This document shows, one piece after another, positions 56,491 to 63,723 of a stretch of 64,000 nucleotides of DNA. The stretch is taken from positions 71,518 to 135,517 of the forward strand of contig PLBE01000215.1 in NCBI GenBank assembly GCA_003134435.1, read 5' to 3'. Both the position numbers and the translations under genes were made by a program. How positions within the stretch are numbered: the first letter of the stretch is position 1; each line of letters begins with the position of its first letter. Below the pieces are notes generated by a model, which was given only the letters and a program-made list of their open reading frames with translations, was not told where the DNA came from and did not search any database. The stretch is from Acidobacteriaceae bacterium. Its GTDB lineage: Bacteria > Acidobacteriota > Terriglobia > Terriglobales > Acidobacteriaceae.

Positions 56491-56511
56491 TGAAATTGAA
56501 TTTCATTTTCA
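56491..56511. promoter_or_regulatory. Overlapping Fur-type boxes before the FTR1 gene
   Basis: TGAAATTGAATTTCA (56491-56505) is a perfect 7-1-7 palindrome. A second, imperfect 7-1-7, TGAATTTCATTTTCA (56497-56511), overlaps it with a 6-base offset, the arrangement described for two Fur dimers on one site. The position 25-45 bases before ATG 56536 would block transcription when iron is plentiful. Confidence 0.65.
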
Positions 56512-56535: not shown

Positions 56536-57786
56536 ATGCTCCAGGCATTCATCATTACCCTTCGCGAAGGCGTCGAAGCGGCTCTCATCGTCGGTATTAC
56601 CCTCGCCTATCTCGCCAAAATCGGCCGCAACGATCTCCGCAAATCGGTCTACGCCGCGCTGGCCGCCGCTTTTGCCGGATCGATTGGCGTCGCCGTCATC
56701 GTCTCCCGCTTTAAGCTCAATGAAGACATCTTCGAAGGCTGGGTCATGCTCATCGCCGCCGTCTTCGTCATCACCATGATCGTCTTCATGATGAAGACCG
56801 GCCGCAAGCTCAAGGGCCAGATCGAAAGCAAGGTCGGTTTGTTTGCCCGCGGCGACGCCTGGATCGGCCTCTTCCTCTTTATCTTCCTCATGGTCATGCG
56901 CGAAGGCGTCGAGACGGTTCTCATCCTCTCCGCTGTGACCTTGAACTCCAGCGAACTGATGAGCTTTATCGGCACCCTCTCCGGCGTGGTCGTCGCCGTC
57001 CTCTTCGGCGTCATGTTCGTTAAGGGCAGCGTCAAGATCAATCTCCAGAAATTCTTCAAAGTCACCACCGCGATTCTCTTCCTCGTTGCCGGACAGCTCA
57101 TCATCTCCGGCCTGCACGAACTCTCCGAGAATGGCGTGCTTCCCTCTTCTCGTCAGGAGATGGCCATCATCGGTCCTATCGTGCGCAACGATTTCTTTTT
57201 CTTCGTCACCATCCTCGTTCTGGCCGCGCTCATGGTGCTGTTTGAAATGAAGAGCCGGCAACCGGTCGAACTTCCTCCCGCCGGCGCTGCCCGACGGAAA
57301 GCCCTCTGGACCGCCCGCCGCGAGCGTCTCTGGATGGCCTCGGTTTACGTCTGCTCGTTCATCTTTATCGTGATGGTCACCGCCGGCTTCATTTACGAGA
57401 AGAGCGCCAGCGCGCTTTCGCCCGCTACTGAAGTGACTTTCGTTGACGGTAAGATTTCCATTCCCCTGAAGCAGGTTTACGATGGCGAACTCCATCGCTT
57501 CGAGGCCAAGGAAGGCGGTGTCGAAGTCCGCTTCTGGCTCTATCAAAAGCCCGACGGAAAAATCGCCACCCTCTTTGACGCCTGCGAAATCTGCGGCGCG
57601 GTCGGATTTTATAAAGGAGCGCAGGGAGTGATCTGTAAGAATTGCGCCGCTCCCATCAATCCGCAGTCGGTCGGCATGCCCGGCGGCTGCAATCCGATCC
57701 CGCTGAAAGCCCAGGTCACCGACGATGCGGTCATTGTCTCGGAAACCGACGTCGCGGCTGGGCGGCGCTATTTCGAGCAGAAATAA
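56536..57786 (+). CDS. FTR1-family iron permease fused to a DUF2318 domain
   Basis: 416 residues. Residues 1 to about 240 are the membrane permease with seven hydrophobic segments and two REGxE iron motifs (REGVE at 10-14 and 122-126), which bind and conduct ferric iron. After a further membrane span (about 267-286), residues 295-416 form a DUF2318 domain with CEIC (350-353), CKNC (367-370) and C385 in a GCNPIPL motif. DUF2318 is usually a separate membrane protein in FTR1/FetABC-like iron uptake loci. Here it is fused. The ABC permease follows after 4 bases. Confidence 0.9.
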   Translation: MLQAFIITLREGVEAALIVGITLAYLAKIGRNDLRKSVYAALAAAFAGSIGVAVIVSRFKLNEDIFEGWVMLIAAVFVITMIVFMMKTGRKLKGQIESKVGLFARGDAWIGLFLFIFLMVMREGVETVLILSAVTLNSSELMSFIGTLSGVVVAVLFGVMFVKGSVKINLQKFFKVTTAILFLVAGQLIISGLHELSENGVLPSSRQEMAIIGPIVRNDFFFFVTILVLAALMVLFEMKSRQPVELPPAGAARRKALWTARRERLWMASVYVCSFIFIVMVTAGFIYEKSASALSPATEVTFVDGKISIPLKQVYDGELHRFEAKEGGVEVRFWLYQKPDGKIATLFDACEICGAVGFYKGAQGVICKNCAAPINPQSVGMPGGCNPIPLKAQVTDDAVIVSETDVAAGRRYFEQK

Positions 57787-59133: not shown

Positions 59134-60315
59134 ATGACGACGAGCACCACTCCCGGCACGCTCCTCACTCCGCTGCAGGTCGCCAATCGCCGTGCCCATG
59201 CGCCCCATACTTCCATGTTCATGCGCATGCTTCTTCGTGCGGCCGTGCTTCGTCGCAGGCGCGCCGCCTCTGCCCTGCTCGCCATGATCGTTGCCGCCGC
59301 CGTCGCCACCGCCATGATGAATCTCTACGTCGACGTGCAAGCCAAGCTCCGCACCGAGTTCCGAAATTATGGCGCCAACCTGGTCGTCGTCGCCAAAGAA
59401 GGACAGGCCTTGCCCGCCGACGCGCTGTCCACAGTCGAATCCGTTCTCGGCGCGAAAACCCTGGCCGTTCCTTTTTCCTACGCCGTCGCTCGCACGAATG
59501 ACGGACAATCGGTGGTCGTCGTCGGCACGGACTTCGCTCGCGCCCACCAGTTGAACCACTGGTGGAAGGTCAGCCGTTGGCCCGATGCCCCCAACCAGGC
59601 GTTGATCGGCATGCGCGCCGCCGCCGTGGTTGGCCCCGGAGCAAGCCCCAGTCGCCAGCCTTTTGCACTCACATTCCAGGGCAAGGCGATTCAACTCGTC
59701 CCCGCCGGCATGCTCCAGACTGGCGCCGGCGAAGATAGCCGTATCTATCTCGATCAATCTGAATTCCAGAACTGGACCGGCGTCGCGCCCTCCACCATAG
59801 AAGTCGCTGCCAACGGAACCGCCGCCGATGTCGACGCATCAATCCGTAAACTCACCCAACTCCTGCCCAATGCCGATATTCGCCCCGTCCGCCAGATCAT
59901 GGAAGGCGAAGCCAACGTGCTCAATAAAACGCGCGCCACGCTTTACGCCTCCGCCACCCTCGTCGTGCTCACCTCCGCGCTCTGCGTGCTCGCCACGCTC
60001 ATCGGATGGGTCTTCGACCGCCGTCGCGACTTCGCCATCATGAAAGCGCTGGGCGCGTCCGAACATCTGGTCAACGGATTCTTCGCCGCCGAGGCCGCGG
60101 CTTTGGGCGTAGTCGGCGCGATCCTCGGCTTCTTCATTGGCATCGCCGTCGCCGTCTGGATTGGACGCGTTAACTTTCACGCGCCTGTCGTGCCGCGTTT
60201 CAGCGTCTTTCCCTACATTCTCGCGGGCAGTGTTGCCGTGGCCCTGCTCTCGGCTGTCCTGCCGATTGTCCTCCTCCGCCGCGTGCAACCGGCTATCATT
60301 CTGAGGGGAGAATAG
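59134..60315 (+). CDS. FtsX/MacB-type ABC permease, second of the iron locus
   Basis: 393 residues with the same four-span topology as the previous gene (N-terminal ASALLAMIVAAAVATAMMNLY; three C-terminal spans from about residue 268). It is a diverged paralogue, sharing for example LRTEFRNYGANLVVVAKEG with LRSYGANLVVTPQED. Two such permeases with one ATPase would form a heterodimeric transporter. The spacer to the ATPase gene is 224 bases and full of repeats. Confidence 0.9.
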   Translation: MTTSTTPGTLLTPLQVANRRAHAPHTSMFMRMLLRAAVLRRRRAASALLAMIVAAAVATAMMNLYVDVQAKLRTEFRNYGANLVVVAKEGQALPADALSTVESVLGAKTLAVPFSYAVARTNDGQSVVVVGTDFARAHQLNHWWKVSRWPDAPNQALIGMRAAAVVGPGASPSRQPFALTFQGKAIQLVPAGMLQTGAGEDSRIYLDQSEFQNWTGVAPSTIEVAANGTAADVDASIRKLTQLLPNADIRPVRQIMEGEANVLNKTRATLYASATLVVLTSALCVLATLIGWVFDRRRDFAIMKALGASEHLVNGFFAAEAAALGVVGAILGFFIGIAVAVWIGRVNFHAPVVPRFSVFPYILAGSVAVALLSAVLPIVLLRRVQPAIILRGE

Positions 60316-60329
60316 CGCGTGTCTCAACC

Positions 60330-60507
60330 CTATCGCTTCGGCTCAGTCCTATCGCTCCGGCTCCGGCTCAGTCCTATCACTCCGGCTCAGTCATATCGCT
60401 CCGGCTCGGCCCTATCGCTCCGGCTCCGGCTCAGTCCTATCGCTTCGTATCAGGGTATCGCTTTAGCGATACCGAAACTCGTCGAAGCCAGACGCGCCTT
60501 TAGGCGC
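60330..60507. repeat. Tandem CTATCGCTCCGGCTC repeats followed by two palindromes
   Basis: From 60330 to 60450 the unit CTATCGCTCCGGCTCAGTC recurs about five times with variants (doubled CCGGCT, TATCAC, GGCC). Then come a perfect 9+2+9 palindrome with CTTTAG centre (60454-60473) and GCGCC-TTTA-GGCGC (60494-60507). All lie between the second permease and the ATPase gene of one operon. Confidence 0.75.
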
Positions 60508-60539: not shown

Positions 60540-61772
60540 ATGATCCAACTCAAGAACGTCACCAAGAGTTATCCCGCCAGAGCTGAAGAAAACAATGGCG
60601 GACACTCTCTCATCAACGCCCTCGACGACATCTCTCTCTCCATCGCTTCCGGCGAGTGGGTCGCCATGATGGGCCCCTCCGGCTCCGGCAAGAGCACCAT
60701 GGTCAATCTCATCGGATGCCTCGACCGCCCCACCACCGGCGAGATCTGGCTTGACGGACAGAACGTAGCCAGCCTCAGCGCCTCCGACCTCAACCACGTC
60801 CGCGCCGAAACTATCGGCTTCGTCTTTCAGCAGTTCCACATGATCCCGTATCTCACCGCCGTCGAAAACGTCATGCTTGCGCAATACTTCCACAGCATGA
60901 CCGACGAAAAGGAAGCCCTCGAAGCTCTCGACCGCGTCGGCCTCAAAGACCGCGCCGGCCACCTGCCCTCGCAGCTTTCCGGTGGCGAGCAACAGCGTGT
61001 TTGCATCGCCCGAGCCCTCATTAACGATCCGAAAATCGTCCTCGCCGACGAACCCACCGGCAACCTCGACGCCGTCAATGAAGAAATCGTTCTGCGCCTC
61101 CTCCGCGAACTTCACCAGCAGGGCCGCACCATCGTCATGGTGACCCACGATCCCGTGGTCGCGCGTCTGGCCGACCGCCGCATCGAACTCCACCATGGAA
61201 AAATCGCCGCCCAGGAAGTCTTCGCCATGGCCGACGATGAGCAGTTCGACGAAGTGCTGGAAGAACTGTTTGCCTTGGAAGAGCACGGCCAAATCGCTGA
61301 GATCGGACGCATGGAAGTGCACGGCGCTCTGCCCGTTTCCATCGCCGTCGAAAAAATGGCGGCTATGGGATTGGTAACCACCCGCCCCCACCCCCCCGAA
61401 GGCCACGATCACAAGCCCTTCGTGAATCCCTGCCACGACGCACTGAAGCCGGCCGGCTTTTCGACGGGTGACGGCTCTGCCATCGTCGAACTCACCGCGC
61501 GTGGACACCAGCGCGCCGCCGACATCATCCGCCGCCACCGCCTCGCCGAACGTCTCTTCACCGATTCGCTCGCCATGGACAGCGAAACCGAAATCGAGCA
61601 GCAGGCCTGCAAGTTCGAGCACATCCTCTCACCCGAAGCCACCGACAAAATCTGCACCTTCCTCAACCACCCGCGCACCTGCCCTCACGGCGCCCCGATT
61701 CCGCCCGGCCCCTGCTGCGGACGTGGCGCCGAACCGAGGCAGACCGCTGGTGCCTTGTCCCGTCAACATTAG
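60540..61772 (+). CDS. ABC transporter ATPase fused to a DtxR-type iron-sensor domain
   Basis: 410 residues. Residues 1-225 are a MacB/LolD-type ATPase: Walker [10 protein letters not shown] (45-53), Q-loop near 97, signature LSGGEQQR (146-153), Walker B IVLADEP (166-172), switch His203. Residues 232-393 match a DtxR/IdeR-type regulator: a winged-helix-like part ([20 protein letters not shown], then KMAAMGLVT) interrupted by a loop, and the iron-binding dimerisation part [10 protein letters not shown] with [11 protein letters not shown] and [12 protein letters not shown]. Ligands equivalent to DtxR H79, E83, C102, E105 and H106 are present as H333, E337, C357, E360 and H361. It probably lets iron control the pump directly. 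Confidence 0.9.
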
Positions 61773-62629: not shown

Positions 62630-63373
62630 TTACAGGCCCAGTCCCCCATCCACCGCCAGCACCTGCCCGGTAATAAACTTCGGAGCCGTCGCAAAGAACA
62701 TCACCGCCGCGGCAATCTCCGTTGCCGTTCCGTTGCGCTCCATCGGCGTCCGCTTCGCCGTCTTTTTCATGAACGCCGCCGCCGATTTTTCGCCCAGATC
62801 AATCACACCCGGAGCCACCGCATTCACCGCAATCTCCGGCGCCAGTGCTTTCGCCATGCCTTTTGTCAGCATATGCACCGCCGCCTTCGACGAGCAATAG
62901 TGCACATGGGTCGCCCACGGGCGCAGTCCGCCCAGCGACCCCATATTAATGATGCGCCCTCTGCGCTTTCTCAAATACGGCAGCGCCTCACGCGACACCA
63001 GAAAAGGTCCGCGCGCATTCGAAGCGAAAATCGCATCCCACTCCGCGACCGTAATCCTCTCAAACTCCACGTCCTCATAATTCGCGGCGTTATTCACCAG
63101 TACGTCAATGCCGCCCAGTTCCTTCGCCACTTCTTTCACCATCTCGCGGACACTTCTCTCCTCGGTAATATCGCAGCGTACCGCCAGCGCTTCCACGCCA
63201 TGTTGCGCCAACTCTCCCACCACCGCCCGCGCCTCGCGCGCCGACTCGCGATAGGTAATCGCCACGTCGGCGCCGTTTTCCGCCGCCGCCAAAGCAATCG
63301 CCCGCCCCAGGCGCTTTGCCCCGCCCGTTACCACCATCGTCTTTCCAGAAAGCGCTCCGCCGTTGGTCGTCAT
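62630..63373 (-). CDS. SDR-family reductase with pteridine-reductase-like motif
   Basis: 247 residues from ATG 63373; the frame is open to 63475 without family character. The cofactor motif reads TGGAKRLG (about 16-23), the TGX3RXG form known from pteridine reductases and FolM. NNAANYED, MGSLGG and YCSSK supply the Asn, Ser, Tyr and Lys of the active site. The end GQVLAVDGGLGL is typical. It could reduce dihydropterin or an unrelated carbonyl compound. Divergent from the glutaredoxin-like gene. Confidence 0.88.
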   Translation of the reverse strand: MTTNGGALSGKTMVVTGGAKRLGRAIALAAAENGADVAITYRESAREARAVVGELAQHGVEALAVRCDITEERSVREMVKEVAKELGGIDVLVNNAANYEDVEFERITVAEWDAIFASNARGPFLVSREALPYLRKRRGRIINMGSLGGLRPWATHVHYCSSKAAVHMLTKGMAKALAPEIAVNAVAPGVIDLGEKSAAAFMKKTAKRTPMERNGTATEIAAAVMFFATAPKFITGQVLAVDGGLGL

Positions 63374-63477
63374 CGTGATGATTCTATATCCAGAGTTGCT
63401 GCGCCCTTCAACGCCCTCAGCCCACCAGTCCTCAGCCACCCTTGGAAAGCCCTCTTCCAACTGATAAACTGCCACCC

Positions 63478-63723
63478 ATGACGCCGCCTCGGGAAGTCGT
63501 CGTTTATTCCCGCAAAGGATGCCATCTCTGCGAAATCGTCAAGGAGAGCATCGTCAAACTTCACAAGCATGGCGGCTTCACCTGGCGTGAAATCGACGTT
63601 GACTCCGACACCGAGGCCCGGCGCCTCTACAGCGACGAAGTCCCCGTAGTCTTCATCAACGGCCGCAAAGCGTTCAAATACCGTATGGACGAGCAGGAAT
63701 TCCTCCGCAAACTCAGCGCTTGA
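63478..63723 (+). CDS. Glutaredoxin-like protein
   Basis: 81 residues from ATG 63478; ATG 63442 is in frame but overlaps the divergent promoter. A thioredoxin fold with redox motif CHLC (about 15-18 in VYSRKGCHLC), cis-Pro segment EVPVVFING, and REIDVDSDTEARRLY. It resembles the DUF836/glutaredoxin-2-like group of small disulfide reductases. The acyl-CoA synthetase gene follows after 74 bases. Confidence 0.9.
   Translation: MTPPREVVVYSRKGCHLCEIVKESIVKLHKHGGFTWREIDVDSDTEARRLYSDEVPVVFINGRKAFKYRMDEQEFLRKLSA

What the first reader, a model, noticed from the sequence alone, without database searches (positions are those of the whole stretch)
60540..61772. ABC ATPase carrying a complete DtxR-like iron sensor
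The protein joins a MacB/LolD-type ATPase (all motifs intact) to a region with both the winged helix and the metal-binding dimerisation part of DtxR/IdeR. H333, E337, C357, E360 and H361 sit where DtxR has H79, E83, C102, E105 and H106; only the H98 position is changed (Glu). A transport ATPase with its own ferrous-iron sensor would let iron stop or start the pump without new transcription, or let the ATPase act as a repressor too. I know of no described protein that works this way.
Basis: partly seen in the sequence, partly recalled or inferred. Interest (0 to 1): 0.82.

Follow-up and report, generated by a model that had tools for sequence, protein, structure and literature searches.

The report
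Iron-pump ATPase with built-in iron sensor
In many soil Acidobacteria the ATPase that helps run an iron-uptake system carries its own iron-sensing domain, borrowed from the diphtheria-toxin-repressor family but with its DNA-gripping part worn away, so it probably switches the pump directly rather than switching genes.

Summary
ORF 60540-61772 (410 aa) is one reading frame joining a MacB/LolD-type ABC ATPase (Pfam E 1e-35) to a DtxR-type metal-binding/dimerisation domain (E 2e-25); the predicted fold matches DtxR at Z 17.6, rmsd 1.9 Å. Around 100 Acidobacteriota loci carry the fusion, with metal ligands essentially invariant and a constant linker, so it is not a frameshift.

It is the last gene of FTR1-FtrD / permease / permease / ATPase, the FetMP-FetABCD (E. 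coli Fls) iron-uptake cluster; the ATPase core is 60% identical to the unfused 232-aa E. coli plasmid protein.

The sensor is not a complete DtxR. It lacks the SH3/FeoA domain. Its winged helix fails the Pfam DNA-binding model, has no predicted second HTH helix, lacks the recognition motif and is acidic. A conserved Fur-box-like palindrome lies upstream of the operon. DNA repression by this protein is therefore unlikely; iron feedback on the ATPase is most likely, but untested.

The sensor's nearest relatives lie beside feoB and share the eroded winged helix. Precedents: Chlamydia YtgCR (metal permease fused to a DtxR repressor, released by cleavage) and MetN/ModC trans-inhibition. New variant of a known kind.

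The parts
56491..56505 (+). Fur-box-like 7-1-7 palindrome TGAAATTGAATTTCA, 45 bp upstream of the first gene
   Evidence: such a site is in 59 of 78 operons compared, 55 of 59 Terriglobales; about 0 in mononucleotide shuffles
56536..57786 (+). FTR1 iron permease fused to FtrD-like (DUF2318) membrane protein; FetM + FetA equivalent
   Evidence: Pfam FTR1 128 bits, FtrD-like 99.8 bits
57791..59110 (+). MacB/FtsX-type ABC permease 1 (FetB equivalent)
   Evidence: Pfam FtsX, MacB_PCD; 38% identical to the E. coli plasmid Fls permease
59134..60315 (+). MacB/FtsX-type ABC permease 2 (FetC equivalent)
   Evidence: Pfam FtsX; 28% identical to the E. coli plasmid Fls permease
60540..61214 (+). ABC ATPase domain, residues 1-225 (FetD equivalent); Walker A 45-53, Q97, signature LSGGEQQ 146-152, E171, H203
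   Evidence: Pfam ABC_tran; 60% identical to the E. coli plasmid Fls ATPase over 202 residues; motifs conserved in 54 homologues
61233..61475 (+). degenerate winged-helix part, residues 232-312, with the acidic first helix (E238) and an H/C-rich wing insertion 283-312
   Evidence: AF2 model without the second HTH helix; below cut-off for PF01325; charge and motif comparison
61494..61703 (+). DtxR metal-binding and dimerisation domain, residues 319-388
   Evidence: Pfam Fe_dep_repr_C; Foldseek and VIA-align against DtxR/IdeR
61680..61718 (+). CPHGxPIPxGxCC signature, residues 381-393
   Evidence: 99 of 100 fused and all feoB-linked relatives, 0 of 21 canonical DtxRs of the phylum

Best explanation
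The protein is the FetD-type ATPase of an FTR1/Fet iron-uptake operon, probably Fur-controlled, to which an iron-type DtxR sensor module has been joined. Cytoplasmic Fe(II) binds at E238/C357/E360/H361 (primary site) and H333/E337/E353 (ancillary site). As in DtxR, binding would draw the first helix (233-249) towards the dimerisation domain. That helix follows the ATPase core by a short linker of fixed length, so the movement would be passed to the two ATPase domains, which the sensor dimer bridges. When cellular iron is sufficient this most likely holds the ATPase in an inactive arrangement and stops FTR1-dependent uptake at once, as methionine does in MetN and molybdate in ModC. Shown here: fusion, fold, conserved ligands, fixed linker, operon context, Fur-like site, loss of DNA-binding features. 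Inferred: iron as the ligand, Fur binding, coupling to ATP hydrolysis, and the direction (inhibition).
For: Metal ligands 87-90 of 90; fold Z 17.6, rmsd 1.9 Å over 132 residues against DtxR. Cys at the C102 position, as in iron-sensing DtxR/IdeR, where 21 canonical DtxRs of the phylum lack it (Glu in those displayed, as in MntR). The metal/dimer domain is as conserved as the ATPase (0.91 against 0.86) and more so than the HTH (0.76). Constant linker. Fused operons with enough flanking sequence have the same four genes; deletion of fetD in C. jejuni causes a growth defect that depends on iron (PMC10783030). The domain is optional: 27 of 49 sampled FetD ATPases are unfused, some in the same family and operon, as expected of a regulatory add-on. 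PF01325 fails, the HTH region is acidic, the recognition motif is absent, and the operon has a Fur-like site, so transcription is accounted for separately. The genome has no FeoB_C hit, so this may be a main Fe importer.
Against: No metal-binding, ATPase or uptake data. The substrate of FetBCD is unknown even in Campylobacter (PMC10783030, PMC6083913), so what is being gated is uncertain. H98 is replaced by Glu and the SH3 ligands are missing, so the ancillary site may be weak. The full-length model is poor (pLDDT 61), so the sensor-ATPase arrangement is unseen. Direction of control is an analogy.
Confidence: 0.6

Rival explanations
1. The C-terminal part is released, by proteolysis as in Chlamydia YtgCR or by internal translation from an ATG at 61227 with AGGAAG at 61213-61218, and acts as a soluble iron-dependent repressor.
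For: YtgCR precedent, with permease-repressor fusions reported in 11 phyla (PMC5599777). The internal ATG position is a start codon in 47 of 54 Terriglobales homologues and has an SD-like sequence in 32 of them.
Against: PF01325 below cut-off, second HTH helix not predicted, HTH region net charge about -2 against +2 in canonical DtxRs, recognition motif 0 of 100. The internal ATG is missing in distant fusions. A Fur-like site already lies at the promoter. Synonymous constraint at the site is not outstanding.
Confidence: 0.12
2. The sensor works in the other direction or as a relay: Fe(II) bound by the domain activates the ATPase, or the domain takes up iron arriving through FTR1 and hands it on as a chaperone.
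For: Ligands and additional near-invariant Cys/His residues (C372, C381, H383, C392, C393; H284, H289, H291, C298, H299 in the Terriglobales) fit metal handling. YiiP-type transporters are activated by metal (PMC10710835).
Against: For an importer, activation by its own cytoplasmic product would run away; the DtxR fold is a metal switch in its characterised members (established knowledge). The His-rich insertion is missing in the other fused lineages.
Confidence: 0.17
3. The domain is only a dimerisation clamp for the two ATPase domains; its metal site is inherited and not used as a switch.
For: The DtxR domain is a dimerisation domain; C-terminal dimerising domains occur on importer ATPases such as MetN (PMC10710835).
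Against: The metal ligands are among the most conserved residues of the module, which a pure clamp would not need; L171 is the only sampled case seen with the Cys lost, and its frame also has a stop.
Confidence: 0.08

Closest known systems
FetMP-FetABCDEF (Campylobacter) / FetMP-Fls (E. coli, Salmonella plasmids)
   Same: Same core genes and order: FTR1, DUF2318 protein, two FtsX-type permeases, ATPase; ATPase core 60% identical
   Different: The E. coli ATPase ends at residue 232 without a sensor; here no FetP or thioredoxin gene was found in the operon, and FTR1 is fused to FtrD
DtxR/IdeR iron-dependent repressors
   Same: Two-domain fold, primary-site Cys-Glu-His and ancillary His-Glu
   Different: Fused to an ATPase, no SH3 domain, H98 to Glu, M10 to Glu, DNA-binding helix eroded and acidic
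feoB-linked DtxR-FeoA proteins (e.g. Pelobacter propionicus pPRO1)
   Same: Same metal domain and CPHGxPIPxGxCC tail; also lack a recognisable DNA-binding helix; same branch of the tree, 99/96 support
   Different: Stand-alone, with a FeoA domain, directly downstream of feoB
Chlamydia YtgCR
   Same: A metal-ABC transporter subunit fused to a C-terminal DtxR domain
   Different: Fused to the permease subunit; the DtxR part is cleaved off and represses transcription with Fe(II) (PMC5599777, PMC7755916)
MetN and ModC importer ATPases (trans-inhibition)
   Same: C-terminal dimerising domain on the ATPase senses the imported substance and blocks transport (PMC10710835)
   Different: Unrelated sensor folds; no iron-sensing ABC case appeared in the passages of that review that I read

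Membership tests
FetD/Fls-type ABC ATPase | Intact Walker A, Q-loop, signature, Walker B, H-loop | tested here: met
   conserved in 54 homologues; Pfam ABC_tran 123.7 bits
FetD/Fls-type ABC ATPase | Operon with FTR1, FtrD/DUF2318 and two FtsX-type permeases | tested here: met
DtxR/IdeR family | Metal-binding and dimerisation domain with Cys-Glu-His primary site | tested here: met
   PF02742 89 bits; C357/E360/H361 90 of 90
DtxR/IdeR family | N-terminal HTH DNA-binding domain (PF01325) | tested here: not met
   12.4 bits against cut-off 26; control DtxR of the same genome 47.5 bits; no second HTH helix in the model
DtxR/IdeR family | C-terminal SH3/FeoA domain (many members) | tested here: not met
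   no PF04023 match; feoB-linked relatives do match
DtxR/IdeR family | Metal-dependent DNA binding | not testable with these tools
   needs EMSA or footprinting; sequence argues against it
YtgCR-type transporter-repressor fusions | DtxR domain fused to the permease subunit of a metal ABC transporter | tested here: not met
   fused to the ATPase subunit
YtgCR-type transporter-repressor fusions | Cleavage releases an active repressor | not testable with these tools
   needs immunoblot of the native protein
Trans-inhibited importer ATPases (MetN, ModC) | C-terminal domain that binds the imported substance and inhibits ATP hydrolysis | not testable with these tools
   architecture fits; needs ATPase and metal-binding assays

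The most novel reading that the evidence does not exclude
A whole subfamily of DtxR-like proteins (signature CPHGxPIPxGxCC, Cys-type metal site, eroded acidic HTH) has given up DNA and serves as the cytosolic Fe(II) sensor of iron transporters: fused to the FetD ATPase in one setting and encoded beside FeoB, with a FeoA domain, in another. Both would be fast post-translational iron feedback.
Probability: 0.45. Interest if true: 0.78.

Novelty: new variant of a known kind. Interest (0 to 1): 0.62.

Why it matters
Iron feedback in bacteria is described mostly as transcriptional. A Fur-type promoter site plus an iron sensor inside the transporter ATPase would be two-level control, fast and slow, of the same importer. 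It also gives a handle on an open question: what the FetBCD ABC transporter does, since an iron-switchable ATPase can be assayed. It warns against annotating every DtxR-like protein beside feoB as a transcription factor.

Tried and rejected
Frameshift or assembly fusion: rejected, the same in-frame join is in about 100 loci from many genomes with a fixed linker. ATPase as its own repressor: disfavoured. Internal translation start at 61227: kept only as a rival; synonymous constraint at E226 ranks 25th of 291 positions. Full-length structure: poor model, not used. Tree of the metal domain: fused and feoB-linked forms are together against canonical DtxRs with 99/96 support, but on only 80 columns; whether fusion happened once or twice, or was undone, is unresolved. 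Other phyla: the one genome-contig scan returned only Acidobacteriota in its best 80 loci, and centres outside the phylum could not be named; in plasmids no fusion was seen among the 30 records listed of 47 with DtxR matches. Ten literature searches of the open-access library found no description of an ABC-ATPase/DtxR fusion; subscription papers were not searched.

Full report
Observation. The frame 60540-61772 is continuous. AlphaFold2 on residues 232-410 with 54 sequences gave pLDDT 83. Foldseek returns only DtxR-family chains among its top 50, and VIA-align gives DtxR at Z 17.6, rmsd 1.9 Å over 132 residues.

Not an artefact. Homologues with the same join occur among the loci of the relatives search and in the 80 loci kept from genome contigs, all but a few complete; the two sets overlap. 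Between VTHD of the ATPase and the first sensor helix there are 36 residues in 92 of 95. The metal/dimerisation part is as conserved as the ATPase core (mean majority 0.91 against 0.86), while the C-terminal tail is not (0.27).

Ligands. H333, E337, C357, E360 and H361 are 90 of 90; E353 87 of 90; E238, which takes the place of DtxR M10, 89 of 90. Canonical DtxRs fetched from the same phylum lack the Cys (Glu in those displayed, the MntR arrangement), whereas fused proteins and their nearest stand-alone relatives have Cys, the DtxR/IdeR arrangement. That points to iron, from established knowledge of these families. Further near-invariant Cys/His residues are C372, C381, H383, C392 and C393, and in the Terriglobales an insertion with H284, H289, H291, C298 and H299; the other fused lineages displayed lack the insertion.

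DNA-binding half. The region fails PF01325 (12.4 bits, cut-off 26), while the genome's own other DtxR reaches 47.5. The model shows the first helix, a coil where the second HTH helix should be, and a third helix. The recognition-helix motif used as a yardstick is in 14 of 21 canonical proteins and 0 of 100 fused ones; mean charge of the region matching residues 250-282 is +2.2 in canonical, -1.9 in fused and -2.4 in feoB-linked proteins; the first helix averages -6.8 in fused proteins. In that comparison the feoB-linked group of 19 includes two fused proteins sorted wrongly (L071, L075), so it is really 17. One relative, L102, lacks about 34 residues of this region but keeps the metal domain.

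Context. Upstream lie FTR1-FtrD and two FtsX-type permeases. This is the core gene set of the E. coli/Salmonella FetMP-Fls and Campylobacter FetMP-FetABCDEF clusters; the E. coli plasmid ATPase is 232 aa, 60% identical over 202 residues, and ends where the sensor begins here. In C. jejuni fetD deletion impairs growth and the FetBCD substrate is unknown (PMC10783030; PMC6083913). In the mapped Acidobacteriota loci, fused ATPases close the same four-gene operon (L164 and L171 showed only the ATPase at the cut-off used). In a phylum sample of 396 genomes, 49 have a FetD orthologue at E 1e-68 or better: 22 fused (17 genera) and 27 unfused (5 genera, 21 genomes in one genus), by comparing with the maps. 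The unfused genomes checked in the same family keep the four-gene operon, so the sensor is dispensable for the pump.

Promoter. A 7-1-7 palindrome resembling a Fur box, TGAAATTGAATTTCA, lies at 56491-56505. Sites of this type, or of a TGCAACTnAGTTGCA variant, occur in 59 of 78 operons, median 39 bp upstream of FTR1, against about none in mononucleotide shuffles; these operons are related, so the count is not of independent events. A quick look at five unfused operons with the same patterns found none near the assumed start, which was not pursued. The genome has three Fur-family genes and no FeoB_C match. Fur binding is inferred.

Origin. The closest stand-alone relatives have the same CPHGxPIPxGxCC tail plus a FeoA domain (in the four scanned) and lie next to feoB in 16 of 17 cases, including a Pelobacter propionicus plasmid. 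The tree separates fused plus feoB-linked from canonical DtxRs (99/96 support) but cannot settle how often fusion occurred.

Mechanism and ranking. The evidence favours iron-dependent control of the ATPase itself. Inhibition at high iron follows the MetN and ModC precedent (PMC10710835) but is an analogy. Release of a repressor, as in Chlamydia YtgCR (PMC5599777, PMC7755916), is the most important rival because the precedent is real; it is disfavoured by the eroded HTH.

Novelty. DtxR fused to a metal transporter is known (YtgCR), and ABC ATPases with substrate-sensing tails are known (MetN, ModC). A DtxR-type sensor on the ATPase of a Fet system, with the DNA-binding part lost, was not found in ten searches of the open-access library. 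I file it as a new variant of a known kind.

Noticed in passing
L113 8839-9498; L144, L153, L154, L156, L157, L160-L163, L172, L173, L175, L176, L179, L183: Stand-alone DtxR-FeoA proteins directly downstream of feoB have an iron-type metal site but no recognisable DNA-binding helix; they may be FeoB regulators rather than transcription factors.
   Followed up: partly
window 56491-56505: Fur-box-like palindrome conserved upstream of the FTR1 operon; a minority of relatives carry TGCAACTnAGTTGCA instead, perhaps a different Fur-family protein's site.
   Followed up: yes
window 61213-61229: SD-like AGGAAG followed by an in-frame ATG at the ATPase/sensor boundary, common in Terriglobales; could give a free sensor protein.
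   Followed up: partly
window 60325-60444: Imperfect tandem repeat (about 44-bp unit containing CTATCGCTCCGGCTCAGTC) in the gap between the second permease and the ATPase gene.
   Followed up: no
L171 8057-9166: A fused relative with the key Cys changed to Phe and a TAG reported inside its matching frame; possibly decaying.
   Followed up: no
L181 7071-8790; L182 7626-8867: Further DtxR-like frames beside FeoB-like genes with another domain arrangement (224 plus 385 aa; 414 aa open frame).
   Followed up: no
window 63442-63723 and 62630-63475: A glutaredoxin-like (DUF836) gene and a short-chain dehydrogenase lie just downstream of the operon; ordinary.
   Followed up: no
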